Positions 1-28,853 of a stretch of DNA of 64,000 nucleotides are shown in pieces; the stretch's first letter is position 1; each line of letters starts with the position of its first letter. The notes under the pieces were generated by a model. That model made no database searches, was not told the DNA's origin, and saw only the letters and a list, made by a program, of their open reading frames with translations. Location of the stretch: positions 62,001 to 126,000 of the forward strand of contig JACYFD010000006.1 of assembly GCA_014803435.1 (NCBI GenBank), read 5' to 3'. A program made the translations under genes and the position numbers. This DNA comes from Cellulosimicrobium terreum (GTDB taxonomy: Bacteria > Actinomycetota > Actinomycetes > Actinomycetales > Cellulomonadaceae).

Positions 1-623
1 TCGCCGAGCGTCGCGGACATCAGCAGGAACTGCGTGCCGGTGAGCTCGAGCAGCGGCACCTGCCAGGCCCAGCCGCGCTGCGGGTCGGCGTAGAAGTGGA
101 ACTCGTCCATGACGACCTGGGAGATGGCGTCCTCGGCCGTGTCGGTCGAACCGATCGGCCCGCTGCCCGCCTCGCCGCGCCGCAGCGCGAGGTTGGCGAG
201 GATCTCGGCCGTGCAGCAGATGATCGGGGCGTCGGCGTTGACCGCGGAGTCGCCCGTCATCATGCCGACGTTCTTCGACCCGAACGCGGCGACCAGCGCG
301 AAGAACTTCTCGCTCACCAGGGCCTTGAGCGGCGCCGTGTAGTACGTGCGGCCCCCGCGACCGGACCGGTGCGCAGCGAGCGCCGCGAACTGCGCGCCCA
401 TCGCGACGAGCGACTTCCCGGATCCGGTGGGTGTGGCGAGGACGACGTGGGACCCGGAGACCAGCTCGATGAGGGCCTCGCTCTGGTGCGGGTAGAGGTC
501 GAGACCCTGCTCGGTGGCCCACGTGGTGAACCCCTCGTACAGCGCGTCCGGGTCCGGGGCCGCGCCCGTGGGTGCGGGGACGTGGGCGAGCAGCGTGGCG
601 GTCCGGCCGGTCGTGGTGGTCAC
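1..623 (-). CDS. DEAD/DEAH-box helicase, 3' end outside window
   Basis: This is the first ~207 residues of an ATP-dependent superfamily 2 helicase, read on the minus strand from a GTG at 621-623 and still open at the window edge. Seen directly: the Walker A/motif I string ATPTGSGKS at residues 63-71, a TAPLKALVSEKF segment (motif Ia region), a DEFH motif II at 173-176 and a SAT motif III at 203-205, in the correct order and spacing. The DEFH box and early sequence resemble the large actinobacterial helicases that carry a C-terminal DUF3516 region, but that region would lie outside the window. It probably remodels RNA or DNA in the cytoplasm; the substrate cannot be told. It is divergent from the mannosidase locus, with 162 bases between the two start codons. 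Confidence 0.85.
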   Translation of the reverse strand, partial: MTTTTGRTATLLAHVPAPTGAAPDPDALYEGFTTWATEQGLDLYPHQSEALIELVSGSHVVLATPTGSGKSLVAMGAQFAALAAHRSGRGGRTYYTAPLKALVSEKFFALVAAFGSKNVGMMTGDSAVNADAPIICCTAEILANLALRRGEAGSGPIGSTDTAEDAISQVVMDEFHFYADPQRGWAWQVPLLELTGTQFLLMSATLG

Positions 624-683
624 GCCCCGAGTCTCTCAGGTCCGGCCTCCCGCAGGTTCGCTCAGATTCCACCCGTCGCGGGC

Positions 684-699
684 TTGATAGCGCTGTCAA
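684..699. promoter_or_regulatory. LacI-family type operator upstream of the mannosidase locus
   Basis: TTGATAGCGCTGTCAA is a 16-base palindrome with one mismatched pair (T/G at positions 5 and 12). It has a central CG step, the layout of LacI/GalR-family operators. It lies 86 bases before the ATG of the first GH92 gene and in the gap between divergent genes. No LacI-family gene is in the window, so the regulator is unknown. Inference: it mediates induction by a mannan-derived sugar. Confidence 0.6.
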
Positions 700-785
700 C
701 GTATGTCAGGGTGAGCGGTGGTCGGCACAGCCGCCGGCCCCCGGGCGATTCCCACGAGGTCGTGGAGCACGAAGGAGTGACCTGA

Positions 786-3700
786 ATGCGGGTACAGAGC
801 GTCGTACGGACGTCGATCGATCGAGCACAGCCACCCGGCGCGAGAGCGCCGCGACGCGCCGTCGGTGCGGCGGTCGCCGCGCTCACGATCGTCGGCTTGA
901 CCGTCCCCGGGCTGGCCACCTCGGCGACGGCGGCCCCCTCCGACCCGGCAGCGACGGAGTCCGACGCCGCCGCTGCCGCCGTCGAGGGCCCGCTGGTCGA
1001 CTACGTGAACCCGTTCATCGGCACCAAGGACGACGGGAACACGTACCCGGGCGCAGCCGTGCCGTTCGGCATGGTCCAGCTCTCACCCGACAACGGGCAC
1101 AACGTCGGCTACGACTACGACCGCACGGCCGTGCGCGGCTTCTCGCTCGTGCACCTCTCCGGCGTCGGCTGCGGCCTCGGCGGCCCGCTCCCCGTCCTGC
1201 CGACGACCGGTGACATCACGTCGACCGACTACGCGCAGTACGAGCTCGGGTTCTCGCACGACGACGAGGACGCCTCGCCCGGCTACTACCGCGTCGGTCT
1301 CCAGGGCGACGACGGCACGATCGACGCCGAGCTCACCGCGACCGAGCACGCCGGTGTCCAGCGCTACACGTTCCCCGAGACCGAGCAGGCCAACGTCCTG
1401 CTCAACGCCGGCCAGGCGCTCAACCGGGTCACCGGATCGACCGTCCACGTCGTCGACGACCACACGGTCGAGACCGAGATCACCGTGCGCGGGTTCTGTC
1501 AGGACACCGAGCCGCAGACCATCTGGACCCGTACGACGTTCGACCGCCCCTTCACCGCCCACGGCACGTGGGACGGTGACACCGTCACCGCGGGGTCCGA
1601 CGAGTCGACCGGCGGCGAGGGTCGTCGCGGCGCGTACGTCACGTTCGACACCACGGGCGGCGACCTCGACGTCGAGGCCGTCACCGCGATGAGCTACGTC
1701 GGCCCCGACGGTGCCGCGGCGAACCTCGCCGCGGAGACGGGCACGTTCGACGACCTGCACGACGCCGCGCGCGGGGCCTGGGAGGAGCGCCTCGGCCTCG
1801 TCCAGGTGGCCGACGGAGCCGAGGACGACCTGCGGACGTTCTACTCCTCGCTCTACCGCAGCTTCCTCGCGCCGAACGTCGGCTCGGACGTCGACGGGCG
1901 CTACCGCGGCTGGGACCAGGAGGTCCACACCGCTGGCGTCGAGGGCGAGCCGGGCACGTACTACCAGAACTACTCGCTGTGGGACACCTACCGGACGCAG
2001 CAGCAGCTGCTGTACCTGCTGGCTCCGCAGGAGTCCGCGGACATGGCGCTGTCGCTCGTGCGGCAGGGCGAGCAGAACGGCTGGCTCCCCCGTTGGGGCT
2101 ACGGCACGGTCGAGACGAACATCATGACCGGTGACCCGGGCACGGTGTTCCTCGTCAGCGCCTGGAAGCAGGGGCTGCTGGCCGGTCACGAGGACGAGGC
2201 GTACGCGGTCCTGCAGCAGAACGCCGATGGGGTGCCGCCGGCCGACTCGCCGGACAACGGGCGGGCGGGCAACGTCGAGTACATCCGCGACGGGTTCGTC
2301 CCGCACGAGCCGTCGCGTCGCGGAGACCCGGGCGACTACGACCTGCAGCACGGCGGAGGCGCGACCATGGAGTACGCGCTGTCCGACGCGATGCTCTCGA
2401 CGATGGCCCGTGGTCTCGGCCACGACGAGGACGCGGACCGCTACGCGGCACGCGGCCAGAGCTTCCGCAACGTGTTCGACCCGCGCACCGGCAACTTCCG
2501 GGCCCGCAACGCCGACGGGTTCTTCGTGGGAGACCCCGACCCGGCGCAGTCCGACGGGTTCCACGAGGGCACGGCCGTGCAGTACCAGTGGCTCGCGCCG
2601 CAGGACTTCCCGGGCCTGTTCGACCTCATGGGCGGGGTGGAGGCCGCGGACGACCGTCTGGACGACTTCTTCGCCTACGACCAGCTCCTCGAGGACCCGG
2701 CGCACGTCGCGAGCGAGGTCTGGGTCAACGGCACGTACGACTACTACGGCTGGAAGACCTACAACCCGAACAACGAGCCGAACCTGCACGCGCCGTACAC
2801 GTACCTGTGGACGGGGCAGCCGTGGAAGACGACGGACGTCGTGCGCGCTGCGTCGACGCTCTTCACCGACGGCCCTGACGGCGTGACCGGCAACGACGAC
2901 CTCGGCACCATGTCGGCGTGGCACGTCCTGTCCTCGCTCGGGGTGTACCCGATCGTCCCGGGTACCGACATGTGGGGTCTGACGACGCCGCTGTTCGACG
3001 ACGTGACGATCACGCTCGACCCGGACGTCTTCGGCACCGACACGCTGCACGTCACCGCGGACGGCGTCTCCTCCGACACGCACTACACGCAGTCGGTCTC
3101 GCTCGGTGGCGACGACCTCGACCGCGCGTGGGTCACCGGTGACGAGCTCACCTCGGCCGGCACGCTCGACGTGACCGTCGGCTCCGAGCCGTCCGACTGG
3201 GCCACCGACCCGGCCGCGTCCCCGGGCGCTGTCGTGCCCGCGGACGGGACCGCGGAGCGCCTGTTCGTGGGTGCCTCGCCGCGCCAGCCGGTCGTCGCAC
3301 CGGGTGGCGAGACGCAGATGTCGGTCCAGGTCGTCGCCCAGGGCGAGGGCACCAAGGAGGGCACGCTCGAGGTGTCGTCCGACGACGCCGTCCAGGCCAC
3401 CACGGACCTCGCGGACTGGACCGCGGTGTCCGACGGCCTCCCGGCGACGGTCGAGGGCACGATCACGCTCGCCGCACCTGCGGACGCCGAGCCGGGTCTG
3501 CACACCGTGCAGCTCGTCGTGCGTGACGACGCCGGGATCGAGACCACCCGTGAGGTGAAGGTCGTGGTCTCGGGCGAGTCGTGGATCGCGGAGACGTTCG
3601 ACAACGTCGGCATCGGCGACGAGGGCGTGGGCAACGCGGACCTCGACGGCCTCGGCTACTACCTGCTGCGCGGAGCGCTCGCGGACGCGGGTGCCGTGCA

Positions 3701-4430
3701 GGGCCTGGAGCTCACCGTGCCCGGGACGGACCTGACCTACACCCTCGGCGCTCCCGCCGCGGGCGAGCCGGACAACACCCTGGCGAACGGCCAGGTCCTG
3801 GAGGTCCCCGAGGAGCTGCGCTCCGCGCGTCACGTCTCGGTGGTGGGGACCGCCACGAACGGCACCCACGGCGGCGACCTGGTGCTCGGGTACGCGGACG
3901 GCACGACGTCCACGGCCTCCGCGCGCCTGAGCGACTGGTGCACCGGCTCCCCGGAGAAGGACAACATCCTCGTCGCCAAGGCGGGCGCACGCGGTGACGG
4001 CACGGGCACCCAGAACATCGGGTGCGGCCTCTACGCCACGTCGCCGATCGCGATCCCCGAGGGCAAGGCACTCACGTCGATCACGCTGCCCAGGGACAAG
4101 CAGCTGCACGTGTTCGCGATCGCGACCGACGCGACGGGTGCGGAGCCTGCGCCGCAGGTCGAGGTGACCGCGCAGGCGCGCTGCCTGGCCGGCAAGGCCT
4201 TCGTGGCCGTGCGGGCGACGAACACGGGCGAGGAGACCGCCGCCATCGACCTGGCCACGGCCTACGGTGCCAGGTCGTTCGCGCAGGTCGAGCCGGGCAA
4301 GAGCGCCTACCAGTCGTTCGCCGCGCGGGCGACGGAGGTCGCGGCGGGCGAGGTGACCGTCACGGTGACCGCAGACGGGGCCGAGCCCCAGCAGGTCACG
4401 GCCGCCTACGACGGGGCGAGCTGCTCCTGA
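786..4430 (+). CDS. Secreted GH92 alpha-mannosidase with NEW3-like and shared C-terminal modules
   Basis: Family GH92 enzymes are calcium-dependent inverting exo-alpha-mannosidases. This 1214-residue protein has an Arg-rich signal peptide (cleavage near residue 50, ATSATAA), then the GH92 domain from about residue 70 (NPFIGT, GNTYPGA, PFG) to about 800. The expected catalytic acid Glu664 (NNEPNLHAPY) and the base region GNDDLGTMSAW with Asp704/Asp705 are present, so it should be active as an ordinary mannosidase. About 832-930 resembles the NEW3 domain of bacterial glycosidases. About 932-1120 looks like a beta-sandwich I cannot name. Residues 1125-1214 form a module shared with the next two genes, with Cys1133 and Cys1213. 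The ATG at 786 has an AAGGAG site eight bases upstream. It is likely exported and acts on alpha-mannan or N-glycan; linkage preference cannot be read from sequence. Confidence 0.93.
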   Translation: MRVQSVVRTSIDRAQPPGARAPRRAVGAAVAALTIVGLTVPGLATSATAAPSDPAATESDAAAAAVEGPLVDYVNPFIGTKDDGNTYPGAAVPFGMVQLSPDNGHNVGYDYDRTAVRGFSLVHLSGVGCGLGGPLPVLPTTGDITSTDYAQYELGFSHDDEDASPGYYRVGLQGDDGTIDAELTATEHAGVQRYTFPETEQANVLLNAGQALNRVTGSTVHVVDDHTVETEITVRGFCQDTEPQTIWTRTTFDRPFTAHGTWDGDTVTAGSDESTGGEGRRGAYVTFDTTGGDLDVEAVTAMSYVGPDGAAANLAAETGTFDDLHDAARGAWEERLGLVQVADGAEDDLRTFYSSLYRSFLAPNVGSDVDGRYRGWDQEVHTAGVEGEPGTYYQNYSLWDTYRTQQQLLYLLAPQESADMALSLVRQGEQNGWLPRWGYGTVETNIMTGDPGTVFLVSAWKQGLLAGHEDEAYAVLQQNADGVPPADSPDNGRAGNVEYIRDGFVPHEPSRRGDPGDYDLQHGGGATMEYALSDAMLSTMARGLGHDEDADRYAARGQSFRNVFDPRTGNFRARNADGFFVGDPDPAQSDGFHEGTAVQYQWLAPQDFPGLFDLMGGVEAADDRLDDFFAYDQLLEDPAHVASEVWVNGTYDYYGWKTYNPNNEPNLHAPYTYLWTGQPWKTTDVVRAASTLFTDGPDGVTGNDDLGTMSAWHVLSSLGVYPIVPGTDMWGLTTPLFDDVTITLDPDVFGTDTLHVTADGVSSDTHYTQSVSLGGDDLDRAWVTGDELTSAGTLDVTVGSEPSDWATDPAASPGAVVPADGTAERLFVGASPRQPVVAPGGETQMSVQVVAQGEGTKEGTLEVSSDDAVQATTDLADWTAVSDGLPATVEGTITLAAPADAEPGLHTVQLVVRDDAGIETTREVKVVVSGESWIAETFDNVGIGDEGVGNADLDGLGYYLLRGALADAGAVQGLELTVPGTDLTYTLGAPAAGEPDNTLANGQVLEVPEELRSARHVSVVGTATNGTHGGDLVLGYADGTTSTASARLSDWCTGSPEKDNILVAKAGARGDGTGTQNIGCGLYATSPIAIPEGKALTSITLPRDKQLHVFAIATDATGAEPAPQVEVTAQARCLAGKAFVAVRATNTGEETAAIDLATAYGARSFAQVEPGKSAYQSFAARATEVAAGEVTVTVTADGAEPQQVTAAYDGASCS

Positions 4431-4438
4431 TTCACCCA

Positions 4439-4470
4439 TGACGGTGCGGGCCGACCGGCCCGCACCGTCA
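4439..4470 (+). terminator. 14-bp stem-loop after the first GH92 gene
   Basis: TGACGGTGCGGGCC and GGCCCGCACCGTCA are perfect complements around a GACC loop, starting eight bases after the stop codon. No T-run follows, so it is either a GC-type actinobacterial terminator or an RNA-stabilising processing stem between two genes of one transcript. Confidence 0.6.
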
Positions 4471-4592
4471 CGTCCGGTCCGTGCCGTCCACGCAGGGATC
4501 ACCTGCTCGTCACCCGACGCTGGCAAGGTCGCCGTGACGGAGCGCGACCAGCACGACCCGCACGATCAGCACCCACCGAGCACGAGGACGAC

Positions 4593-7500
4593 ATGAACCA
4601 CATCTCTACCGGGACCCGACGCCTGCGTGGCGGCGGGCTCGTCGCCGGGACCCTCGCGGCCGCGCTCGCGGTCGTCGGGCTCGCGCCTGCGGCCTCAGCG
4701 GCGCCCGAGGCGCCGACGACCACGGCCGAGGACCAGGACCTCGCCTCTCTCGTCGACGTGTTCGTCGGCACGGAGGGCGACTTCGGCAACGACATGCCGG
4801 CCGCGCAGGCGCCGAACGGCCTGGCGAAGGTCAACCCGCGCACGATGCCTGGACGCAACAACACCGGCTACGACTACGCGCAGCCGCAGATCTCGGGGTT
4901 CACGCACACGAACCTCGACGCGGTCGGCGGGTCCGGTGCCGGTGGTGACATCCTGGTCGTCCCCACGTCGGGCTCCTACACCGCGCGCCCGGACACGAGC
5001 ACGTACGCGCACACGTTCTCCCACGACGACGAGGACGCCGGCCCGGGCTACTACTCCGTCGGGCTGGGCAACATCGCGGGCACCGACGGGGCGATCAAGG
5101 CCGCGAGCGGCACGATCGACGCCGAGGTGGCGGCGACGACGCGCTCGGGCGTGCACCGGTACGACTTCCCCGACGGTTCGACGCCGAGCCTGGTCCTCGA
5201 CCTGTCGACGAACAACACGAGCCGCATCGCGTCGTCTCTCGACGTCTCGACGCTCCAGGACGGCCGCACCGCGATCAGCGGGAGCTTCACCGGCCACTTC
5301 TACAACGCCGACTACCAGATGTACTACTACGCGACGACGACGCAGCCCGTCGCCCGGGTCCAGACCTGGGGCGACGACAAGGCGCTGACCGACGCGAGCG
5401 CCCAGGACGGCACGGACACCGGCGCGATCCTCACGTTCGACGCGGACGATGCGGACGACGTCGGGCTCGAGGTGACGATCTCCCCGGTGAGCGCCGCGCA
5501 GGCGAAGGTCGACCAGGCGAACGAGCTCGGCGACCTCGGGTTCGACGAGGTCCGGGACCGCACGCGTGCCGAGTGGAACGCGCAGCTCGGCAAGGTCGAG
5601 GTCTCGGCCTCGGTCGCGACCGACCCGACGGGTGACCTGAAGAAGCTCTTCTACACGCACCTGTACCGGATGTTCGCGATGCCGATGAACGCCACGAGCA
5701 CCTCGGGCACGTACCGGGGTGTCGACGGCGTCGTCCACCGCGCACAGGGCTTCACGTACTACGACTCGTGGACCACGTGGGACGACTTCCGCAAGTTCTC
5801 GGTCATCGCGTACATCGATCCCGAGACGTACCGCGACATGGTGCAGTCCCTGATCTACCTGTACGCGGACGCGGAGGCCGAGGGCTCCGGCAGCGGTATC
5901 GGCAAGCTCCTGCACACCGTCCCGACGGTGCGGTGGGAGCGGTCGTCCGTGGTGATCGCCGACGCGCTCGGCAAGGGCTACACCGGCTTCGACCGCCTCG
6001 ACGAGGCGTACCCGGCACTCCAGCGCCTCGTGGGCGGGTACAGCGACGCGGACCGCGAGCGCGGCTACATCCCCGGGAACCCGGGATCCTCGGTCCAGCT
6101 GGGCTACGACCAGTGGGGCCTGTCGCTCGTCGCCGACGAGCTGGGCCTCACGGACGACGCGCAGGAGCTGCGTGAGCAGGCCGCACTGCCGATCGAGAAC
6201 CTCATCAAGCCCGGCGCGTGGACGGCCGGCGACGGCACCGAGGTCGGCGTGCTCATGCCGCGAGCGGCGGACGGCTCCTGGCAGAGCGCGAACCTCGAGA
6301 AGTTCGAGACCGCGGGCCTCTACCAGGGCACGCTGTGGCAGTACAACTGGTACGACGCCTACGACATGGCCGGCCTGATGGACGCGATGGGCGGCACCGA
6401 GGCGGCACGCCTCGCGATGCGGCACATGTTCGGCGAGGACTCGGCCGTCGACGACGGCTCGAGGATGCTGCACTCGAACGCGAACGAGATCGACCTCCAG
6501 GCCCCGTACCTCTTCAACTACGTGGGTGAGCCCGCGCTGACGCAGAAGTGGACGCGCGCGATCTACACGAAGGAGACCTGGAACCGGTACATCGGCACCG
6601 GCTCCACGAGCTTCTTCCCGAGCGGCGGCGGCGAGTTCACGCCGCCGATCAGGACGAAGGTCTACCAGCTCGACCCGCGGGGCATGCTCGCGACGATGGA
6701 CAACGACGCGGGCACCATGTCCACGATGTTCGTCGGCGCGGCGATCGGCCTGTTCCCCGTGACAGCAGGCTCGGACGAGTACCAGATCGGCTCGCCGATC
6801 TTCGACACGGCGACCATCCGCCACGACGACGGCACGGCGTTCCGCGTGACCGCGCAGGGCGTGTCGGAGGACGCCTTCTACATCCAGTCGGCCACGCTCG
6901 ACGGCGCCGACCTCGACAACACCTTCGTCGACTACGCCACGGTCGTGGGCGACGGCGACCTCACGTTCGCCATGGGCGAGGAGCCCAGCGACTGGGGCAC
7001 CGACACCGAGCCCGCCTACTCGGCGAGCACGGCAGCCGAGGGCCCGGACTCCGACGCCTACCCGGTGTCCGCGGACCCGGCCACGGTGCAGGCCGCCGCG
7101 GACGGCGACGTCGACGCCTCCGTGACCCTCACCCTCGGTGGCGGCGCGGCCCTCGCGGCCGAGCCTGGCACCGAGCTCGTCGAGGAGGGCGACGCGAGCG
7201 TCGAGGGCCTTCCGGCGGGCGTGGACGCGACCGTCACCGTCGTGTCCCCGACGACGCTCACCGTCGCCCTCGCCGGCACGGCTGCCGAGGAGGCCCGCTT
7301 CCACGTCCGCCTCGGCGACGCGGCCCTCGCGGACGGTGTCGCCGCGAAGGCGCTGAGCGGCCAGGGCGTCTCGCTGCGCTCGCCCCTGCGGCTGTCGGTC
7401 GCCGGTGCCGAGCGCGCCGACCTCGCCGACCTCGTGAAGGACGCCGCCGCCGTGCGCAAGGGGAACTACTCCTCGGTGTCGTTCGCGCGTCTGACGGCCG

Positions 7501-9476
7501 CGCTCGACCGTGCGCAGGACCTGCTCGCGGACGACGCGTCGTCGAGCGTCGACCTGCGGTTCGCCACGGACCGCCTGTCGGCCGCGATCGACAGGCTCGA
7601 CATCACCGGTGGCGGATACCGGGTCCTGGAGGGCGAGAGGTCCGAGGGCTGGTCCGGCGGCGAGCTGTCGAACGAGGCGAACAGCTCGTCCGGCAACCTG
7701 GGCGGTGTGCGGTCGGGGTCGTGGATCCAGTACCAGGACATGACGTTCGACGGCGACGCCCTCCCCGGGTACGTGACGGTGGACTACGCGACGAGCTTCG
7801 GGTCCGGTGAGGAGCCGAGCACCGTCGTCGTGCACGCTGGCGACGTCGACGGTCCGGTCGTCGCGACCGTCGACCTGCCCGGCACGGGTGGCTGGGGGAA
7901 CTACCAGGAGGTCACGACCGAGCTGGACGACGCGCAGGCGCTGGCCGACGCGGGCGCGGTGACGTTCGAGTTCCTCGCCCCGGACGGTCGGAGCTGGGTC
8001 GGCAACTTCGACCTGTTCCGCTTCAGCGAGGACGACCCGGCGCAGAACCCGGACCCGGGCGCCTCTGCCGCGGTCACGGTCGAGTCGGAGGACTGGACCG
8101 AGAACTCCGGTGGCGGGCTCAAGAAGGAGTCGTCCACGTGGTCGAGCGGCCCGGTCACCAACGTCGGCGGCACCGCGGACGGCGACTGGCTCGCCTACGG
8201 GCAGGTCGACCTCGGTGACCTTCCGCTCGGTGAGCTGTCCGTGCACTACGTGCACAACTCCGGCCGGTGCGGGACGGACTCGGCGCTCGAGGTCTACCTC
8301 GACGAGTTCGACCCGGAGAACCCGGGCGAGCCGTTCGCCCGCGTGCCGCTCGCGACGACCGGCTCGAGCTGGACGACGGACGGTACCGCGACCGTCGCCC
8401 TGCCCGAGACCGTCTCGGGGACGCACGAGGTGTTCGTCCGTCTGATGACCACGCCGGACGCCGCGCACCCGTACGTCGCCAACCTCGACAGCATGACGTT
8501 CGCACCGGGCGGGCCCACCGACGTCCTCGTCGAGTCGGAGGACTGGACCGAGAACTCCGGTGGCGGGCTCAAGAACGAGAGCTCCACGTGGTCGAGCGGC
8601 CCGGTCACCAACGTCGGTGGCACCGCCGACGGCGACTGGCTCGCGTACGGGGAGATCGACCTCGGGTCGGCGGCGCTCGACCAGCTGTCGGTGCACTACG
8701 TGCACAACTCCGGTCGCTCCGGCAACGCCTCGGCGCTCTCGGTGTACCTCGACGAGTTCGATCCCCAGAACCCGGGCGAGCCGTTCGCCACGGTGCCGTT
8801 GCCCACGACGGGCTCGAGCTGGACGACCGACGGCGTCGCGACGATCGACCTGCCCAGCCCGGTGCGCGGCTCCCACGAGGTGTTCGTGCGCCTGTCGACG
8901 CAGGCGTACGCGAACCACCCGTACGTCGCGAACCTCGACAGCATGACCTTCTTCACCGACGCCTACGACGTGGAGGTCCCGGAGACGGACACCGCCGCGC
9001 TGGCGGCGGCGGTCGCCGACGTCGAACACCTCGAGGGCGAGGGCGATCGGTACGGTCGCATCGACTTCGGCGTGTTCGTGCGGGAGCTCGACGCGGCGCG
9101 CGCGCTGCTGGAGGCGGGCGACGCCACCCAGGAGCAGGTCGACGACCAGGCGCGTCGTCTGGCGCTCGCGGCCGGGCAGCTCGTGCCGGTCGAGGAGGAA
9201 GTGGAGCTGGTCTCCGTCGAGGTCAGCGCGCGCTGCCTCGCCGGCAAGCCCTACGTCGGCATCCGGGCGACGAACGTCTCGGACGGGCCGGTGGCGATCG
9301 AGCTGTCGAGCGAGCTGGGCTCGCGGTCGTACGAGGCCGTGAAGGCTGGCGCGAACGCGTACCAGTCGTTCGCAGCGCGCTCGGTCACCGGTGACATCGA
9401 GGTCACCGTGACCGCGGCAGGAGCCGACGGGGAGCAGACGGTCGAGCAGACCGTCACGGTTCCCCGCTGCTCCTGA
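4593..9476 (+). CDS. Secreted multimodular GH92 alpha-mannosidase with carbohydrate-binding repeats
   Basis: A 1627-residue secreted relative of the preceding gene. Signal peptide to about residue 36 (AASA). GH92 domain about 50-820, with the acid Glu632 in NANEIDLQAPY and the base pair Asp703/Asp705 in MDNDAGTMS. The motif after the acid differs from the NEP form of the first enzyme, so it belongs to a different branch of the family. Then follow a FIVAR-like helical segment (about 943-1005), a CBM6/35-like beta-sandwich (about 1006-1148), two near-identical 150-residue CBM6-like repeats (from 1163 and from 1313), a second FIVAR-like segment (about 1466-1532) and the shared two-Cys C-terminal module (about 1540-1627, Cys1548 and Cys1626). 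It probably binds a polymeric mannan and trims alpha-mannose from it outside the cell. It lies 162 bases after the first GH92 gene on the same strand. GH92 phosphomannosidases are reported with Gln at the acid position; this protein keeps Glu. Confidence 0.92.
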   Translation: MNHISTGTRRLRGGGLVAGTLAAALAVVGLAPAASAAPEAPTTTAEDQDLASLVDVFVGTEGDFGNDMPAAQAPNGLAKVNPRTMPGRNNTGYDYAQPQISGFTHTNLDAVGGSGAGGDILVVPTSGSYTARPDTSTYAHTFSHDDEDAGPGYYSVGLGNIAGTDGAIKAASGTIDAEVAATTRSGVHRYDFPDGSTPSLVLDLSTNNTSRIASSLDVSTLQDGRTAISGSFTGHFYNADYQMYYYATTTQPVARVQTWGDDKALTDASAQDGTDTGAILTFDADDADDVGLEVTISPVSAAQAKVDQANELGDLGFDEVRDRTRAEWNAQLGKVEVSASVATDPTGDLKKLFYTHLYRMFAMPMNATSTSGTYRGVDGVVHRAQGFTYYDSWTTWDDFRKFSVIAYIDPETYRDMVQSLIYLYADAEAEGSGSGIGKLLHTVPTVRWERSSVVIADALGKGYTGFDRLDEAYPALQRLVGGYSDADRERGYIPGNPGSSVQLGYDQWGLSLVADELGLTDDAQELREQAALPIENLIKPGAWTAGDGTEVGVLMPRAADGSWQSANLEKFETAGLYQGTLWQYNWYDAYDMAGLMDAMGGTEAARLAMRHMFGEDSAVDDGSRMLHSNANEIDLQAPYLFNYVGEPALTQKWTRAIYTKETWNRYIGTGSTSFFPSGGGEFTPPIRTKVYQLDPRGMLATMDNDAGTMSTMFVGAAIGLFPVTAGSDEYQIGSPIFDTATIRHDDGTAFRVTAQGVSEDAFYIQSATLDGADLDNTFVDYATVVGDGDLTFAMGEEPSDWGTDTEPAYSASTAAEGPDSDAYPVSADPATVQAAADGDVDASVTLTLGGGAALAAEPGTELVEEGDASVEGLPAGVDATVTVVSPTTLTVALAGTAAEEARFHVRLGDAALADGVAAKALSGQGVSLRSPLRLSVAGAERADLADLVKDAAAVRKGNYSSVSFARLTAALDRAQDLLADDASSSVDLRFATDRLSAAIDRLDITGGGYRVLEGERSEGWSGGELSNEANSSSGNLGGVRSGSWIQYQDMTFDGDALPGYVTVDYATSFGSGEEPSTVVVHAGDVDGPVVATVDLPGTGGWGNYQEVTTELDDAQALADAGAVTFEFLAPDGRSWVGNFDLFRFSEDDPAQNPDPGASAAVTVESEDWTENSGGGLKKESSTWSSGPVTNVGGTADGDWLAYGQVDLGDLPLGELSVHYVHNSGRCGTDSALEVYLDEFDPENPGEPFARVPLATTGSSWTTDGTATVALPETVSGTHEVFVRLMTTPDAAHPYVANLDSMTFAPGGPTDVLVESEDWTENSGGGLKNESSTWSSGPVTNVGGTADGDWLAYGEIDLGSAALDQLSVHYVHNSGRSGNASALSVYLDEFDPQNPGEPFATVPLPTTGSSWTTDGVATIDLPSPVRGSHEVFVRLSTQAYANHPYVANLDSMTFFTDAYDVEVPETDTAALAAAVADVEHLEGEGDRYGRIDFGVFVRELDAARALLEAGDATQEQVDDQARRLALAAGQLVPVEEEVELVSVEVSARCLAGKPYVGIRATNVSDGPVAIELSSELGSRSYEAVKAGANAYQSFAARSVTGDIEVTVTAAGADGEQTVEQTVTVPRCS
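8079..8965 (+). repeat. Tandem 450-bp in-frame repeat encoding two CBM6-like modules
   Basis: The segment starting GTCGAGTCGGAGGACTGGAC at 8079 recurs at 8529, exactly 450 bases (150 codons) later. The first ~60 codons are almost identical at DNA level, including synonymous positions, while the later parts have drifted. This indicates a fairly recent internal duplication or ongoing homogenisation of a carbohydrate-binding module within the second GH92 gene. Confidence 0.9.
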
Positions 9477-9480
9477 CCTG

Positions 9481-9534
9481 ACGGGCCCGCCTCACGGCGG
9501 CGTCGTTCGCGACGCCGCCGTGGCGCGGGCCCGT
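9481..9534 (+). terminator. Long two-part stem-loop with TTCG tetraloop after the second GH92 gene
   Basis: Outer arms ACGGGCCCGC (9481-9490) and GCGGGCCCGT (9525-9534) enclose a CT/GC internal loop and an inner 13-bp perfect stem (9493-9505 with 9510-9522) closed by a TTCG tetraloop. It starts five bases after the stop codon. No T-tract follows. Terminator or mRNA-processing element separating mannosidase from phosphatase. Confidence 0.65.
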
Positions 9535-9583
9535 CGAACGTCACGACAGGTAGGAACACGCACGACGACTCGAAGGGGACGAC

Positions 9584-11725
9584 ATGACAGGGACGACGAT
9601 GTTCCGAGGGCGCGGCGACGCTGCCGCGCCGATCGACCGGCGGAGGCCGGTCGTCGCGACGCTCGCCGCGCTCACCACGCTCGCGCTCCTCCTCGTGGGA
9701 GCGCTGCAGGCGCCCGGTGCACGCGCGGACGAGGGGTTCACCCCGACCGCAGTGGTCGGCACGGACACCACCTGGCGCTACCTCGACGACAACACCGACC
9801 CTGCGGCAGGTCTGAGCGACCGCACCGCCTGGACCGACCCGGGCTTCGACGACGCGGCCTGGAACACCGGGACCCCGGGCTTCGGCGCGGTCAACGGCAC
9901 GGCGTCGGGCATCGGCGGCGGCAACACCATCGAGACGCTGCTGGGCTACTGGATCACGCAGGCACCCAAGAAGGTCGTGCCGGCGTACTTCTTCCGCACC
10001 ACGGTCACACTCGACGCGGCGGCGCTCGACGGGGCCACCGGCCTCGCCGGGACGCTCGTGTACGACGACGCGGCGACGGTCTACGTCAACGGCGAGCGGG
10101 TCTCCGGGTGGGGCGACTCGATGATCACGCGGAACCTGCAGTACCAGGACAGGGCGGGGGCGACCGCGCCGTTGCGCACGGCCGTCATGATCCCGGCGGG
10201 GCTGCTGGTCGCGGGCGAGAACACGATCGCCGTCGAGATCCACCAGTGCAACGAGACCAGCTCGGACGTCTTCTTCGCGCTCGACCTCGCGACGACCGAC
10301 AACCCGTCGATGCCCTTCCCGTCCGACGTCCTCGACCGCGAGTACGCGTCCGACTCCACGCCTGACGCCCCGGGCGGCGGCGACTGGTTCACGTGGATGC
10401 TGCGCGGGTTCGACGACCTGCGGGAGAACCACCCCGAGGTCTTGTCGCCCAACGAGCCGGGCGAGCCGACGAGCGCGAACGACCTCGGCTCGCTCGCGCG
10501 CAACAACGCCTACTCGGCAGGTGACGCCCAGGTGCGGCGCGCCCTGACGGACGGCGCCGGCTCGCCGTACGTGACGATGGCGGACGGGCTCGGCAGCCAG
10601 CTCGGGCCGATCTACCGCACCGCGCTGGACGCCGGCGAGCTGCCCAAGACGAAGGCCCTGCTCGCGGGGCGCGTCGAGGAGTCCGTGGGCAACCACGAGC
10701 CCGCGAAGGCGGCCTACAGCTACAAGCGTCCGTTCGTCCGGCTCGGCTTCACGGCCGACGGCGGTCACGTCAATCCGTTCGACTCGTCCGGAAGCTACGA
10801 GGGCCTGCGGAACAACGGCTCCTTCCCGAGCGGGCACACCAACCACGGCTACTCGCAGGGGACCGTCCTCGCGACGCTCCTGCCCGAGCTCGGCCCGCAG
10901 ATCCTCGCCCGCGCGTCCGAGTACGGCGACAACCGCCTCGTCCTCGGGTTCCACTACCCGCTCGACGTCATGGGCGGCCGTATGACCGGGCAGAACATCG
11001 CGCAGCTGCGCTGGTCCGACCCCGAGTTCCGCGACCTCCTCGAGCAGGCGCGCGCCGAGCTCGTCAGGGTCCTCGAGGACGGGTGCGGCGACGTCCTCGC
11101 GGCCTGCGTGGCCGGACAGGAGCAGTACCTGCCGACCGACGAGGCGCTCGACGTGTACGCCGGTCGCATGACGTACGGCTTCCCGCTCGTCGGGGACACC
11201 GGGCGCGAGGTCGAGGTGCCCGACGGCGCCGAGGACCTCCTGCGCACGACCTTCCCCGACCTCACCGGCGACCAGCGTCGCCTCGTCCTCGCCTCGACGT
11301 CGATCGACTCGGGCTACGCGCTCGACGTCGAGGGCCCGGGGGAGTGGCAGCGGATCGACCTCGCCGCGGCGATGGCCGCAGACGTCAGCGTGAACGACGA
11401 CGGCACGCTCACCGTGGACGGCGAGGTCGTGGGCGATCCCACGACCCCCACCGACCCGCTGGTCGAGGTCCAGGCCTCCGGTCGGTGCCTCGCCGGCGAA
11501 CCGTACGTCGCGGTCCGCGCGCTCAACGTGTCGGACGGCGCGGTGCGCGTGGTGCTCGACACGGGCGCCGGGTCGCGCACGTTCGACGCCGTCGCGGCGG
11601 GCGCGAGCGCGTACCAGTCGTTCAAGGTGCGCGACGTCGCGGGCGACGTGCCCGTGTCCGTGACCGCCGACGCCGGGCAGGAGACACGGACGCAGACGCA
11701 GGAGGTGGCCGTACCGGTCTGCTGA
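9584..11725 (+). CDS. Secreted PAP2/vanadium-haloperoxidase-fold phosphatase with sugar-binding-like N-domain
   Basis: A 713-residue exported protein. The signal peptide ends near residue 48 (GARA). About 49-240 resembles a galactose-binding-like beta-sandwich (WRYLDDNTDP start). The middle holds the three PAP2 phosphatase motifs in order: KX6RP at Lys375-Arg382-Pro383, PSGHT with His418, and RX5HX3D as Arg451, His457 and Asp461. These residues bind phosphate and form the phosphohistidine intermediate in this family, so phosphatase activity is well supported; the substrate is not. Residues about 627-713 are the same two-Cys module found at the end of both upstream GH92 proteins (Cys635 and Cys713, here without the final Ser). 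The start ATG at 9584 has a GAAGGGGACGAC site. Context suggests removal of phosphate from mannose-6-phosphate groups of phosphomannan, or general phosphate scavenging. Confidence 0.88.
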   Translation: MTGTTMFRGRGDAAAPIDRRRPVVATLAALTTLALLLVGALQAPGARADEGFTPTAVVGTDTTWRYLDDNTDPAAGLSDRTAWTDPGFDDAAWNTGTPGFGAVNGTASGIGGGNTIETLLGYWITQAPKKVVPAYFFRTTVTLDAAALDGATGLAGTLVYDDAATVYVNGERVSGWGDSMITRNLQYQDRAGATAPLRTAVMIPAGLLVAGENTIAVEIHQCNETSSDVFFALDLATTDNPSMPFPSDVLDREYASDSTPDAPGGGDWFTWMLRGFDDLRENHPEVLSPNEPGEPTSANDLGSLARNNAYSAGDAQVRRALTDGAGSPYVTMADGLGSQLGPIYRTALDAGELPKTKALLAGRVEESVGNHEPAKAAYSYKRPFVRLGFTADGGHVNPFDSSGSYEGLRNNGSFPSGHTNHGYSQGTVLATLLPELGPQILARASEYGDNRLVLGFHYPLDVMGGRMTGQNIAQLRWSDPEFRDLLEQARAELVRVLEDGCGDVLAACVAGQEQYLPTDEALDVYAGRMTYGFPLVGDTGREVEVPDGAEDLLRTTFPDLTGDQRRLVLASTSIDSGYALDVEGPGEWQRIDLAAAMAADVSVNDDGTLTVDGEVVGDPTTPTDPLVEVQASGRCLAGEPYVAVRALNVSDGAVRVVLDTGAGSRTFDAVAAGASAYQSFKVRDVAGDVPVSVTADAGQETRTQTQEVAVPVC

Positions 11726-11767: not shown

Positions 11768-12385
11768 ATGGACGGCGACCAGGACGGCGAACGACTCACG
11801 AGCTACCAGGACAGGCCGGCGTTCCACGCGCAGGACCCGGAGCGGTGGCGGTCCTGGCTCGCCGCGCACCACGACGACGCCGAACCGGGCGTCTGGCTCG
11901 TGACGTGGCGCCGGGGGAGCGGTCACGAGGTCCACGGGTACGAGCCGTGGATCGAGGAGGCTCTCGCGTTCGGGTGGATCGACGGCCAGGCGTCGACCGT
12001 CGACGACGCACGGCACGCCCTGTGGTTCACGCGCCGCCGACGGGGCAGCCGCTGGACCCGGCTCAGCAAGGAACGGGTCGCGCGCATCGAGGTCGACGGC
12101 CGCATGACCGACGCCGGTCGCGCGGTCGTCGACGCCGCGAAGGCCGACGGGTCGTGGACCCGGCACGACGACGCCGAGGCGCTCGTCGTGCCGGACGACC
12201 TCGCCGCGGCGCTCGCATCCTCAGCGGGCGCGCGCGAGCGGTTCGAGGCCTTCGCCCCCGGGGTCCGACGCTCGATCCTCGGCTGGATCGTCGAGGCGCG
12301 CAGGCCCGAGACCCGCGCACGGCGCATCGCCGAGACCGCGGCTGACGCCGCGCGCGGCGTCCCGGCGCACCAGCCGAGGCGTTAG
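11768..12385 (+). CDS. YdeI/OmpD-associated family protein
   Basis: A 205-residue cytoplasmic protein of the YdeI/OmpD-associated family (often labelled bacteriocin-protection protein), recognised from the pattern FGWIDGQ, WFTRRRRGSRWTRLSKERV and a C-terminal RRSILGWIVEARRPETRARRI segment. The biochemical role of the family is not established. An AGGAGG site lies upstream of the ATG. It follows the phosphatase gene by 42 bases on the same strand, but nothing links it to mannan use. A paralogue of nearly equal length is at 22926. Confidence 0.75.
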   Translation: MDGDQDGERLTSYQDRPAFHAQDPERWRSWLAAHHDDAEPGVWLVTWRRGSGHEVHGYEPWIEEALAFGWIDGQASTVDDARHALWFTRRRRGSRWTRLSKERVARIEVDGRMTDAGRAVVDAAKADGSWTRHDDAEALVVPDDLAAALASSAGARERFEAFAPGVRRSILGWIVEARRPETRARRIAETAADAARGVPAHQPRR

Positions 12386-25832: not shown

Positions 25833-28800
25833 CTACCCGCGGACCGTCCGGCACGGGGCGCCGTCGAGCCAGAACTGCTCGGGGACGGGGGACGCGAGCG
25901 ACCCCGGGCTGCCGATGAACCCGATCGTCACGGGGCTGCCCGCGCGCGCGTTCCATCGCATGGCGCCAGCGGTCACGGTCTCGCCGTCCTGGGACCAGCC
26001 CGCGCTCCACGCCTGTGCGGTCACGCGCTGGTCGCCGACCCACGACCACGTGAGCTCGGACCACTCGAGCGGTCCGTGGGTCGGGCGGATCCAGATCTGG
26101 CTGGTGAAGCCGCCCGGCCACGACCCGTGCTCCGTGTACGACACCTCGCACGTCGGCGCCACGACCTCGCCCTGGCCCTGGTCGGCGAGGAACGACGCGA
26201 CCCACGTCAGGGCCGAGTTCCAGTTGACCGTGATCTCGTTGCTCGCCCACGAGGTGATGTCGTCGACGTAGCAGGTCTGGGGCGCGCACCCGTCCGGGAA
26301 CAGGCCCTGCATGGTTGGGTCCCAGGTCGGCGCGTCCGAGTTGGGACCGCCGGCCACGGAACCCGCAGGCGGGTGCGGCAGGTCCGGGTTGAGCTGCGCC
26401 GCGAACCAGCGCGAGTGCTGGTTCTGCGAGGACACGTCGCCGTAGCCGGTCACGTAGGACAGGTTCAGGGCGTTGCGGCCGAGCAGGTGGTCCATCGACT
26501 CCACGACGGCGTCCCGGTACGCGACGTCGCCCGTGAGGTCGAACGCCGCGCCCAGCACCACCTGCGCGTTGAGCACCGAGCTGTTGGAGCCCCACACATA
26601 CGTGCCGTCGTCCTCGCCCGCGTACGCGGCGCCCCACGGGCCACCCTGCTGCACGGCGAGGATCGTGTCCGCGCCGTCCGTCACGAGGTCGCGGGCCGCG
26701 GCACGGACCGGGTGCGCGTTCGGCACCGACGCGAGGTCGATCAGCCCGAGCGGGCCGACCTGCCCCCAGCTGAACCCGCCGGGCCCGATCGTGTCCGCCG
26801 CGTCGTCGAGGTGGTCGCCCACGTAGTCCGCGAAGCTCGCCTCGTCCGTCGTCAGGTACAGCTCGACCGCCGCCCAGAAGAACTCGTCGGTGACGTCCGC
26901 GTCGTCGTACGGGCCGCCACCGTCGGCGCCGTCCGCCGCGGGGGCGTACAGGTCCGGGGTGGCGAGGGCCGCGTCCCAGGCGGTGCGGGCGTCGGCCAGG
27001 AGCTCGTCCGCGTAGTCCGCGTCGTAGGACGCGAACAGGCGCGCACCCTGCGCGGCGGTCGCGGCGAGGTTGAGCGTCGCGGCCGTGGACGGGCGGTGCA
27101 GGTAGCGCGTCTGCGCGTCCTGGTGGGGTAGGAGCGGCAGGCCGGTCCAGCCCTTGTCGTGGATCTTGTGGTGGGCCATCCCGGCAAGCGGCTCGCCGGC
27201 CGGGACCATCATCGACTGCATGAACTCGAGCTCCCAGCGCGCCTCGTCGAGCACGTCGGGCACGCCGTTGTCCGCCTCCGGGATGGCGAGCGTCCCGTCG
27301 GCGAGAGCGCCCGCGTCGCGGGTCGGGGCGTGCAGCGAGCGCTCGTAGGTGGCGAGCAGCTGGGCGGTGGCGATCCCGCCGTTGACCACGTACTTGCCGT
27401 GGTCGCCCGCGTCGTACCAGCCGCCGACGACGTCGAGCGTGTAGTCGCACGTCCACGGCTCGTCGTACGGCTGGACCGGGTCGTCCGCGGGCTGGCACGG
27501 CACGTCGCGGTCTCCCTGGTTCGTCGCGCCGTCGGCGGGGGAGACCACGTGCCCGGCGGGGCGGGCGTAGTCCTCGCCGACGAGGTCGGCGTCGATCTCG
27601 GTGCCTGACCGTGCGAGGTAGAAGTAGTCCAGCGCGTCGTACCGCAGGTCGGCGTAGGCGGCGGTGCCGACGTCGAACGCGTGGGACGTCTCGCCGTCGG
27701 TCACGAGGGTGTAGGTACCCGCCGGCAGCGACCCGAGGTCGATCGTGTGGACGTTCTCGCCGGAGGCGTCGTCCGTGCCCGACGGCGCGGTGGTCCCCTC
27801 CGCGACGACCGCGTCCCCGTCCCGGACCTCCCAGGCGACGGGGTCGACCGCGTCCGTCACCAGCGTCGCGCGCTGCGGGCCGTCGGTGAGGTACCCGACC
27901 TGGTTGACGCGCACGCGCGGGCCCGTGTCCGGGGCGTAGGGCGGCAGGCTGCTGCCCGAGACGAGCGAGACGGTCTCGAGGCAGAAGGTCCACGCCTGCG
28001 CCGCGCCGCCGAGCTGGAACGCCATCTGCGTCTGCGGGTAGGACGCGGCGCCGCCGTCGTCCGGGCCGGGGAGGGTGAACGCGAGCTCGCCGCTCGTCCC
28101 CGACGCCTCGCCGTACGCGGTGTACGGGTCGACCTGGAGCCCGACGACGGCCCGGACCGGCCCGCTGCCCGTCCCCGTGTACGTCGCGACGTAGTCGCCG
28201 GCCGGTAGCTCGAGATCGTTGATCCCGAGGATCGCGTCGTAGGTGCCGACCCCACCGGGCACGGCCACGCACGCCGCGCCGGTCGCGACGTCGATCCCGG
28301 TGTCGCGCGAGTACCACCACGGGTCGGAGCCGTCGGTGAACTCCGTGCGGGGCAGGTGCTCGGTCCCCGCAGGGACGAGCGAGACGTCGTCGAGGCAGAA
28401 CGTCCACGCGGCGTCGTGCCCGCCGAGCTGGAACGCGACCTGGGCCTGCGGCTCGTCGGCCGCGACGTCGAACGTCAGGGTGTGGGTGCCCGCGGCCTCG
28501 CCGGGGGCGAGCGCGAGCGTGCCGTACGCGTCGTAGGGCGCGTAGTCCTGCGCGACGTTCGCGCGCACGGGACCGGCGCCGGACGTGGTGAAGGTCAGGG
28601 ACCACTCGCCGGCGGGCAGCTCGACGCTGCCCTGGCCGACGATGTGCGTCCACGGGTCGCCGCCTGCGGGGACGTCGGCGCACAGGACGCCGTCCTCGAC
28701 GCTCGTCGTGACGTCGGGCGTCGACCACCAGGCCCCGCCGCCGTCGTCGAAGTCGCCATCGACGACGTCCGCGCCGGCCGGTGCGGCGAGCGGGATCAGC

Positions 28801-28853
28801 AGGGCGGTGGTGGCGGCGGTCGCCAGCAGTCGCAGGAGTCGGGTGCTGTGCAC
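25833..28853 (-). CDS. Secreted GH9 cellulase with tandem CBM4, Ig-like domain and CBM2
   Basis: A 1006-residue secreted cellulase with the layout of the CenC family. A signal peptide to residue 28 is followed by two CBM4/9-like modules (about 29-165 and 170-313), a CelD_N Ig-like domain (about 318-403) and a GH9 (alpha/alpha)6 catalytic domain (about 405-890). The catalytic base region DAGDHGKY has Asp481 and Asp484; the PROSITE-type second GH9 signature YVDDITSWASNE ends with the proton donor Glu873; QNQHSRWFA carries the substrate-binding His. The last ~100 residues are a CBM2 with two cysteines. It should cleave beta-1,4-glucan, with CBM4 favouring amorphous and CBM2 crystalline cellulose. 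It is probably controlled by the CebR/CelR-like boxes upstream. Confidence 0.95.
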   Translation of the reverse strand: MHSTRLLRLLATAATTALLIPLAAPAGADVVDGDFDDGGGAWWSTPDVTTSVEDGVLCADVPAGGDPWTHIVGQGSVELPAGEWSLTFTTSGAGPVRANVAQDYAPYDAYGTLALAPGEAAGTHTLTFDVAADEPQAQVAFQLGGHDAAWTFCLDDVSLVPAGTEHLPRTEFTDGSDPWWYSRDTGIDVATGAACVAVPGGVGTYDAILGINDLELPAGDYVATYTGTGSGPVRAVVGLQVDPYTAYGEASGTSGELAFTLPGPDDGGAASYPQTQMAFQLGGAAQAWTFCLETVSLVSGSSLPPYAPDTGPRVRVNQVGYLTDGPQRATLVTDAVDPVAWEVRDGDAVVAEGTTAPSGTDDASGENVHTIDLGSLPAGTYTLVTDGETSHAFDVGTAAYADLRYDALDYFYLARSGTEIDADLVGEDYARPAGHVVSPADGATNQGDRDVPCQPADDPVQPYDEPWTCDYTLDVVGGWYDAGDHGKYVVNGGIATAQLLATYERSLHAPTRDAGALADGTLAIPEADNGVPDVLDEARWELEFMQSMMVPAGEPLAGMAHHKIHDKGWTGLPLLPHQDAQTRYLHRPSTAATLNLAATAAQGARLFASYDADYADELLADARTAWDAALATPDLYAPAADGADGGGPYDDADVTDEFFWAAVELYLTTDEASFADYVGDHLDDAADTIGPGGFSWGQVGPLGLIDLASVPNAHPVRAAARDLVTDGADTILAVQQGGPWGAAYAGEDDGTYVWGSNSSVLNAQVVLGAAFDLTGDVAYRDAVVESMDHLLGRNALNLSYVTGYGDVSSQNQHSRWFAAQLNPDLPHPPAGSVAGGPNSDAPTWDPTMQGLFPDGCAPQTCYVDDITSWASNEITVNWNSALTWVASFLADQGQGEVVAPTCEVSYTEHGSWPGGFTSQIWIRPTHGPLEWSELTWSWVGDQRVTAQAWSAGWSQDGETVTAGAMRWNARAGSPVTIGFIGSPGSLASPVPEQFWLDGAPCRTVRG

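What the first reader, a model, noticed from the sequence alone, without database searches (positions are those of the whole stretch)
684..11725. Secreted mannosidase-mannosidase-phosphatase trio with a common C-terminal tag
Two GH92 alpha-mannosidases and a PAP2-fold phosphatase lie in a row on one strand, all exported, all ending in the same ~88-residue domain. Seen directly: intact GH92 catalytic residues and all three PAP2 motifs. Known: some GH92 enzymes from Cellulosimicrobium-type bacteria act on mannose phosphodiesters of yeast mannan, and phosphate is a common mannan substituent. Inference: the three form an extracellular system for phosphorylated alpha-mannan in which the phosphatase removes monoester phosphate that would block the mannosidases.
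Basis: partly seen in the sequence, partly recalled or inferred. Interest (0 to 1): 0.85.

Follow-up and report, generated by a model that had tools for sequence, protein, structure and literature searches.

The report
Enzymes stripping phosphate from fungal mannan
Three neighbouring genes in a Cellulosimicrobium-type bacterium encode exported enzymes that very probably act one after another: one removes the mannose cap from a mannose-phosphate-mannose link of yeast mannan, one removes the exposed phosphate, and one trims mannose; in other bacteria the first two are fused into one protein, and the cap-remover has lost its usual acid residue three separate times.

Summary
(1) The middle protein does NOT have intact GH92 residues. 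It is an ortholog of CcMan5 (77% identity), the GH92 reported to cleave mannose-phosphate-mannose, and has Gln578 where glycosidic GH92s have the general-acid Glu. (2) The third protein is a class A acid-phosphatase-like PAP2 enzyme (model Z 18-19 to PhoC/PhoN). (3) Relatives of this phosphatase are fused to CcMan5-type GH92 in single ~2,200-2,360-residue proteins in Streptomyces and Microbacteriaceae. A second Gln-type GH92 lineage is fused to the same PAP2 family or to unrelated purple-acid-type phosphatases. None of 50 Glu-type GH92s carries a phosphatase. (4) Glu-to-Gln arose three times in GH92 (one origin rejected, AU p = 5.6e-6). Best explanation: the middle enzyme uncaps, the PAP2 enzyme removes the exposed phosphate, and ordinary mannosidases then proceed. 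(5) The 'common tag' does not define the trio: it ends ~50 proteins in this genome, is absent from Pfam and NCBIfam, and has a generic Ig-like predicted fold. (6) The intact trio is conserved only in C. arenosum and, rearranged, Luteimicrobium. Activities remain untested.

The parts
786..4430 (+). Gene A: exported GH92 alpha-mannosidase, Glu-type (1214 aa)
   Evidence: GH92N and GH92 Pfam matches E 8e-67 and 3e-135; nearest solved structures are Bacteroides GH92s
2565..2567 (+). Gene A general-acid codon, Glu594 in FHEGTAVQYQW
   Evidence: alignment to BT3130
2760..2789 (+). Gene A '580-loop' YNPNNEPNLH, lacking the His-Glu pair of alpha-1,2-specific GH92s
   Evidence: alignment; motif described in PMC12858847
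4593..9476 (+). Gene B: exported CcMan5-type GH92 (Gln-type) with three CBM6-like stretches (1627 aa)
   Evidence: 77.2% identity to CcMan5 over 768 columns; Pfam
6324..6326 (+). Gene B Gln578 at the general-acid position (LYQGTLWQYNW)
7629..8990 (+). Gene B three CBM6-type repeats (starts at about 7629, 8082, 8532; end approximate)
   Evidence: Pfam CBM_6, 3 stretches; repeat starts
9584..11725 (+). Gene C: exported class A acid-phosphatase-like PAP2 enzyme with an N-terminal domain shared with purple-acid-type phosphatases (713 aa)
   Evidence: Pfam PAP2 E 4e-11; solved NSAPs E 3e-14; model Z 17.7-19.1 to NSAPs
10706..10966 (+). Gene C catalytic motifs K-x6-RP (10706-10732), GSFPSGHT (10817-10840), NR-x5-H-x3-D (10931-10966)
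4158..4427 (+). C-terminal tag domain of A
9210..9473 (+). C-terminal tag domain of B
11462..11722 (+). C-terminal tag domain of C

Best explanation
A secreted pathway for phosphorylated fungal alpha-mannan. Gene B (Gln-type GH92, CcMan5 ortholog, anchored by CBM6 modules) hydrolyses the Man-alpha-1-phosphate-6-Man cap, releasing mannose; the phosphate is a good leaving group, so the general acid is dispensable and has been lost. Gene C (class A acid-phosphatase-like PAP2) then hydrolyses the exposed 6-phosphomonoester. Gene A (Glu-type GH92) and other mannosidases encoded elsewhere trim the now neutral chains. Shown: sequences, residue changes, fusions, gene neighbourhoods, predicted fold. 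Inferred: substrates, order of action, and that fungal mannan is the natural substrate.
For: B is 77% identical to CcMan5 and shares its Gln; CcMan5 is reported to cleave Man-alpha-1,6-PO4-Man (PMC5930347), and Gln at this position in BT3990 strongly impairs ordinary mannosidase activity (PMC10167667). C-family PAP2 is fused to CcMan5-type GH92 in eight records (Streptomyces ISL-12, Streptomyces NBC_01558, G262, Leifsonia aquatica, Leifsonia 71-9, Schumannella soli, Mycetocola lacteus, an Actinomycetales MAG). Another, separately evolved Gln-type lineage is fused to PAP2 (Actinomyces polynesiensis) or to a purple-acid-type metallophosphatase (Streptomyces, G070). 0 of 50 Glu-type but 14 of 55 Gln-type GH92 ORFs carry a phosphatase. 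One origin of Gln is rejected, p 5.6e-6. C adjoins B in C. arenosum, Luteimicrobium xylanilyticum and Bifidobacterium psychraerophilum, and a metallophosphatase lies 17 bp or 1.7 kb from B-type genes in G646 and G006. In C. arenosum, C carries a ~640-aa tail 68-69% identical to B's non-catalytic half. C's fold is that of NSAPs. The genome also has a tagged GH76.
Against: No activity was measured. In C. cellulans/funkei-like genomes B lies away from C, and several Gln-type genes (G029, G044, G046, G704, G701, and 25 of 26 distinct Streptomyces Q2 sequences) have no PAP2 close by. The eight Q1 fusions may be one event, and seven of the eight records were found with a PAP2 query. C itself is not in the fused Q1 subclade of the PAP2 tree. 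A's linkage specificity is unknown.
Confidence: 0.78

Rival explanations
1. C is a general extracellular phosphate-scavenging acid phosphatase that happens to lie next to GH92 genes; there is no pathway.
For: Class A NSAPs are broad phosphomonoesterases (own knowledge); in Rarobacter, the G004 genome and several Streptomyces, C homologs have no GH92 within about 8-10 kb.
Against: Fusions to Gln-type GH92 in two lineages, adjacency in several genera, B's targeting tail on the C. arenosum phosphatase, and use of a second unrelated phosphatase fold for the same partnership.
Confidence: 0.12
2. The trio is a set of independent mannan and phosphate scavengers in a GH92 insertion hot spot; order and adjacency carry no meaning.
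For: The interval between the helicase-like and YdeI-like genes holds different GH92/PAP2 sets in each species: A-B-C, A-X-B-C, A-X-C, A-C, B, A, A-X.
Against: The same three families cluster at another locus in Luteimicrobium (A-B then C convergent), and fusions exist.
Confidence: 0.15
3. The natural substrate is another mannose-phosphate polymer (for example another microbe's phosphoglycan) rather than fungal phosphomannan.
For: Carriers span diverse Actinomycetota, including Bifidobacterium and Actinomyces as well as soil genera; no substrate was tested.
Against: CcMan5 acts on yeast-type mannosyl phosphate; C. cellulans is a yeast-wall lysing species (PMC1458353, abstract); the genome encodes GH76 and GH81.
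Confidence: 0.2
4. The Gln-type GH92s are inactive, binding-only proteins rather than phosphodiester enzymes.
For: Loss of the general acid would be expected to cripple ordinary glycosidase chemistry.
Against: CcMan5, with the same Gln, is reported active on the phosphodiester; the Asp residues of the base motif are kept; three origins, two of them with fused phosphatases, argue for a selected function.
Confidence: 0.07

Closest known systems
CcMan5 / CcGH92_5 of Cellulosimicrobium cellulans (PDB 2xsg, 4aq0)
   Same: Gene B: 77% identity over the catalytic region, the same Gln, the same D-N-D base motif
   Different: Known as a stand-alone enzyme; no dedicated phosphatase partner found in the literature held; in genomes whose copy is ~95% identical to CcMan5 the gene lies away from the phosphatase gene
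Bacteroides thetaiotaomicron yeast-mannan system (Cuskin 2015, as reviewed in PMC10154615)
   Same: Removes phosphate-linked mannose and then phosphate during alpha-mannan breakdown
   Different: Uses a GH38 for the phosphate-linked mannose and phosphatases after import into the cell; here a GH92 and exported enzymes, fused in some relatives
Class A non-specific acid phosphatases (PhoC/PhoN; PDB 1d2t, 2a96, 9htz)
   Same: Gene C: the three motifs, GS[FY]PSGHT signature, fold Z 17.7-19.1
   Different: Extra N-terminal domain, ~115-aa C-terminal extension and tag; below the PhoC equivalog cut-off (53 vs 430 bits); partnered with GH92
Glycosidic GH92 alpha-mannosidases (BT3990, BT3130, NnGH92)
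   Same: Gene A: fold family and Glu general acid
   Different: Lacks the His-Glu pair of alpha-1,2-specific enzymes; carries the tag

Membership tests
Glycoside hydrolase family 92 | GH92N plus GH92 catalytic domain | tested here: met
   A and B both far above Pfam cut-offs
GH92 acting as ordinary glycosidase (gene A) | Glu general acid (Glu533 of BT3990) | tested here: met
   Glu594
GH92 acting as ordinary glycosidase (gene B) | Glu general acid (Glu533 of BT3990) | tested here: not met
   Gln578 instead
alpha-1,2-specific GH92 (gene A) | His-Glu pair in the 580-loop | tested here: not met
   A has YNPNNEPNLH; motif from PMC12858847
CcMan5-type mannosyl-phosphate uncapping enzyme (gene B) | Orthology to CcMan5 | tested here: met
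   77% identity; same strongly supported clade with the acid column left out
CcMan5-type mannosyl-phosphate uncapping enzyme (gene B) | Gln at the general-acid position | tested here: met
   All clade members extracted, including CcMan5 and B
CcMan5-type mannosyl-phosphate uncapping enzyme (gene B) | Activity on Man-P-Man | not testable with these tools
   needs an enzyme assay
Class A non-specific acid phosphatase (gene C) | K-x6-RP, GSYPSGHT and SR-x5-H-x3-D motifs | tested here: met
   Present with Tyr to Phe and Ser to Asn changes
Class A non-specific acid phosphatase (gene C) | Fold of PhoC/PhoN rather than vanadium haloperoxidase or lipid phosphatase | tested here: met
   Z 17.7-19.1 to NSAPs; 12.0 or less to lipid phosphatases and haloperoxidases
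PhoC equivalog NF045654 (gene C) | Curated cut-off 430 bits | tested here: not met
   53.4 bits
Sortase or PEP-CTERM-type sorting tag (common tag) | Short recognition motif, transmembrane segment, basic tail at the C-terminus | tested here: not met
   The tag is an ~88-aa beta-sandwich ending at Cys or Cys plus one residue in 48 of 50 proteins, with no membrane segment after it
Named domain family (common tag) | Match to a Pfam or NCBIfam model | tested here: not met
   No model covers it in A, B or C
Known CBM or Ig-like family (common tag) | Structural match specific to one family | tested here: inconclusive
   Only generic Ig-like matches, best Foldseek E 3.4e-3, Z up to 9.9

The most novel reading that the evidence does not exclude
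GH92 has evolved mannosyl-phosphodiester hydrolases at least three times by the same Glu-to-Gln loss of the general acid. Two of the lineages have been joined, independently, to phosphatases of two unrelated folds (PAP2 acid phosphatase and purple-acid-type metallophosphatase), giving two-step 'uncap and dephosphorylate' megaenzymes for phosphomannan; the window's B-C pair is the unfused form.
Probability: 0.62. Interest if true: 0.8.

Novelty: new variant of a known kind. Interest (0 to 1): 0.7.

Why it matters
Mannosyl phosphate gives yeast mannan its negative charge and blocks ordinary mannosidases. A dedicated extracellular uncapping-plus-phosphatase pair, and single proteins that contain both, would explain how Actinomycetota clear that block. 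They would also provide enzymes for removing or tuning mannose-6-phosphate on yeast-made glycoproteins, and give a sequence rule (Gln at the general-acid position, phosphatase linkage) for finding phosphodiester-specific members among the many GH92 genes annotated as 'alpha-1,2-mannosidase'. The convergent loss of a catalytic acid is a clean natural experiment in enzyme mechanism.

Tried and rejected
Common tag as evidence for the trio: rejected, 50 proteins of the genome carry it. PAP2 domain as vanadium haloperoxidase: disfavoured by sequence and structure comparison. Single origin of Gln in GH92, and one origin for the second and third Gln lineages: rejected by AU tests. Tag function by fold: no informative match. 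Papers: Tiels 2012 was not looked up by id (CcMan5 facts were taken from papers that cite it), and Cuskin 2015 is not held; searches for GH92 with PAP2, acid phosphatase or phosphomannan degradation found no description of such fusions, but most subscription papers are missing from that library. Promoter and terminator scan: nothing above chance, and no terminator-like site on the + strand inside the trio.

Full report
What is there. The window (contig C11 62001-126000 of a 4.49 Mb genome in 14 contigs) holds three same-strand genes: A 786-4430, B 4593-9476, C 9584-11725. Gaps are 162 and 107 bp, and no terminator-like site was found on the + strand between them. Pfam gives GH92N+GH92 for A and B, CBM6 for B, and PAP2 for C.

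Correction 1: gene B is not a canonical mannosidase. It matches the solved CcMan5 structures end to end (77.2% identity over 768 columns), and at the general-acid position it has Gln578 (codon 6324-6326), as CcMan5 does. Gene A has Glu594. CcMan5 is described as cleaving Man-alpha-1,6-PO4-Man (PMC5930347). The Gln variant of the acid in BT3990 is strongly impaired on alpha-1,2-mannobiose (PMC10167667). That a phosphate leaving group needs no general acid is established chemistry, and is the reason I recall being given for the Gln of CcMan5 (own knowledge; the primary paper, Tiels 2012, was not read here).

Correction 2: the tag. The ~88-residue C-terminal domain occurs at the end of 50 distinct ORFs in this genome; 53 profile hits, against 25-63 in five other genomes of the genus, 29 and 19 in two related genera, few or none in the others tried, and hits in 6 of 396 genomes of the phylum. 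Carriers include GH92, GH43, GH76, GH127, GH95, GH97, GH81, GH3, pullulanase, subtilase, ThuA, glucose/sorbosone-dehydrogenase and metallophosphatase proteins. 48 of 50 end in Cys or Cys plus one residue. No Pfam or NCBIfam model covers it. AlphaFold2 gives a confident 7-strand sandwich (pLDDT 95) with only generic Ig-like matches. It looks like a house tag of the genus's exoproteins, function unknown; a surface-retention or general-adhesion role is a guess.

The phosphatase. C matches class A acid phosphatases (1d2t and others, E 3e-14). Its PAP2 model (pLDDT 92.5) superposes on NSAPs with Z 17.7-19.1, against 12.0 or less for lipid phosphatases and 11.2 or less for haloperoxidases. Relatives keep K-x6-RP, PSGH and NR-x5-H-x3-D. 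Its N-terminal ~190-aa domain also occurs on purple-acid-type phosphatases, including one tagged protein of the same genome.

Neighbourhoods. The interval between a helicase-like gene and a YdeI-like gene (both named by eye) is a variable GH92/PAP2 site: A-B-C here; A-X-B-C in C. arenosum; A-X-C or A-C in C. cellulans, C. funkei and C. composti; B alone in G032; A or A-X in a related genus. Luteimicrobium xylanilyticum has A and B together with C convergent, at another locus. Bifidobacterium psychraerophilum has C next to a CcMan5-type gene. G006 and G646 have a purple-acid-type phosphatase next to a CcMan5-type gene. In C. arenosum, C carries a ~640-aa tail 68-69% identical to B's non-catalytic half, so the phosphatase and the uncapping enzyme share a targeting module there.

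Fusions. Searching with C found single proteins of about 2,300-2,360 aa with CcMan5-type GH92 (acid = Gln), CBM6 modules and the C-type PAP2 domain: Streptomyces ISL-12, an Actinomycetales MAG, Schumannella soli, Leifsonia 71-9, Leifsonia aquatica, Mycetocola lacteus. A plasmid of Streptomyces NBC_01558 carries another, and G262, found by GH92 query alone, another of 2,218 aa. Actinomyces polynesiensis and a Propionibacterium MAG have a different GH92 fused to the N-terminal domain plus PAP2. The A. polynesiensis GH92 also has Gln at the acid position (FEQSTGKQYG); the MAG's GH92 part is incomplete. Its relatives in Streptomyces and G070, also Gln-type, are fused to a purple-acid-type metallophosphatase. 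A third Gln-type lineage (FAQGTSATYTW) is common in Streptomyces (30 of 30 fetched) without fused phosphatase, but in S. sulphureus it lies 450 bp from a C homolog.

Tests. On a GH92 tree built without the acid column, Gln needs three changes, all forced by well-supported branches. One clade of all Gln types is rejected (AU p = 5.6e-6), and so is one clade of the second and third lineages (p = 8.9e-5). In a tally of distinct ORFs with a closed C-terminal end, 0 of 50 Glu-type and 14 of 55 Gln-type GH92s contain a phosphatase domain (Fisher p 5.8e-5). This p-value ignores relatedness and the fact that several fusions were found with a PAP2 or C-derived query. Leaving those out gives 6 of 47 against 0 of 50 (one-sided p about 0.011, worked out by hand, same caveat on relatedness). 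On the PAP2 tree the Q1 fusions and the Q3 fusions are separate clades of one subfamily, so fusion of this phosphatase to another GH92 lineage happened at least twice. The metallophosphatase fusions add a third pairing. The Q3 motif has a Glu one residue before the Gln (FEQS), so a shifted acid cannot be excluded there.

Mechanism. B removes the mannose cap from Man-alpha-1-P-6-Man; C removes the exposed phosphate; A and other mannosidases trim the chain. Steps one and two rest on orthology, residue change, fold and fusions; their order and the fungal substrate are inferred. A's linkage is open: it lacks the His-Glu pair of alpha-1,2 enzymes.

Known or new. Mannosyl-phosphate uncapping by a GH92 is known, and phosphate removal during mannan breakdown is known in Bacteroides, where a GH38 and phosphatases act after import (PMC10154615). 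The dedicated PAP2 partner, the GH92-phosphatase fusions and the three independent Glu-to-Gln changes were not found in the papers searched; the library lacks most subscription papers. Rated a new variant of a known kind.

Noticed in passing
window 4158-4427, 9210-9473, 11462-11722; 50 copies genome-wide: An unnamed ~88-residue C-terminal Ig-like domain ending in Cys(-Gly) closes 25-63 proteins per genome of this genus and is nearly absent outside a few Micrococcales; it looks like a genus-level exoprotein tag of unknown function.
   Followed up: partly
L206-L235, L248-L255 (Streptomyces): A common Streptomyces GH92 lineage (motif FAQGTSATYTW) has lost the general-acid Glu to Gln in all 30 fetched copies, mostly without a linked phosphatase; a predicted further phosphodiester-type GH92 group.
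   Followed up: partly
L257, L259, L260, L261, L262 and L256: Gln-type GH92 fused to a purple-acid-type metallophosphatase in single proteins of about 1,450-2,165 aa.
   Followed up: partly
window:9722-10318 (C N-terminal domain); L094:8261-10477; L190-L193: The N-terminal ~190-aa domain of C recurs on purple-acid-type phosphatases and on large proteins of Hungatella and other Clostridia; an unnamed phosphatase-associated domain.
   Followed up: no
window 1-785 to 11768-12385 and the same interval in L053, L054, L087-L089, L096, L097: The interval between a helicase-like gene and a YdeI-like gene is a variable insertion site whose GH92/PAP2 cargo differs from species to species.
   Followed up: partly
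window 25833-28853 (-): A 1006-aa protein with a signal-peptide-like start (VHSTRLLRLLATAATTALLIPLAAPAGADVVDGDFDDGGGAWWSTPDVTTSVEDG...) that ends without the tag; not analysed.
   Followed up: no
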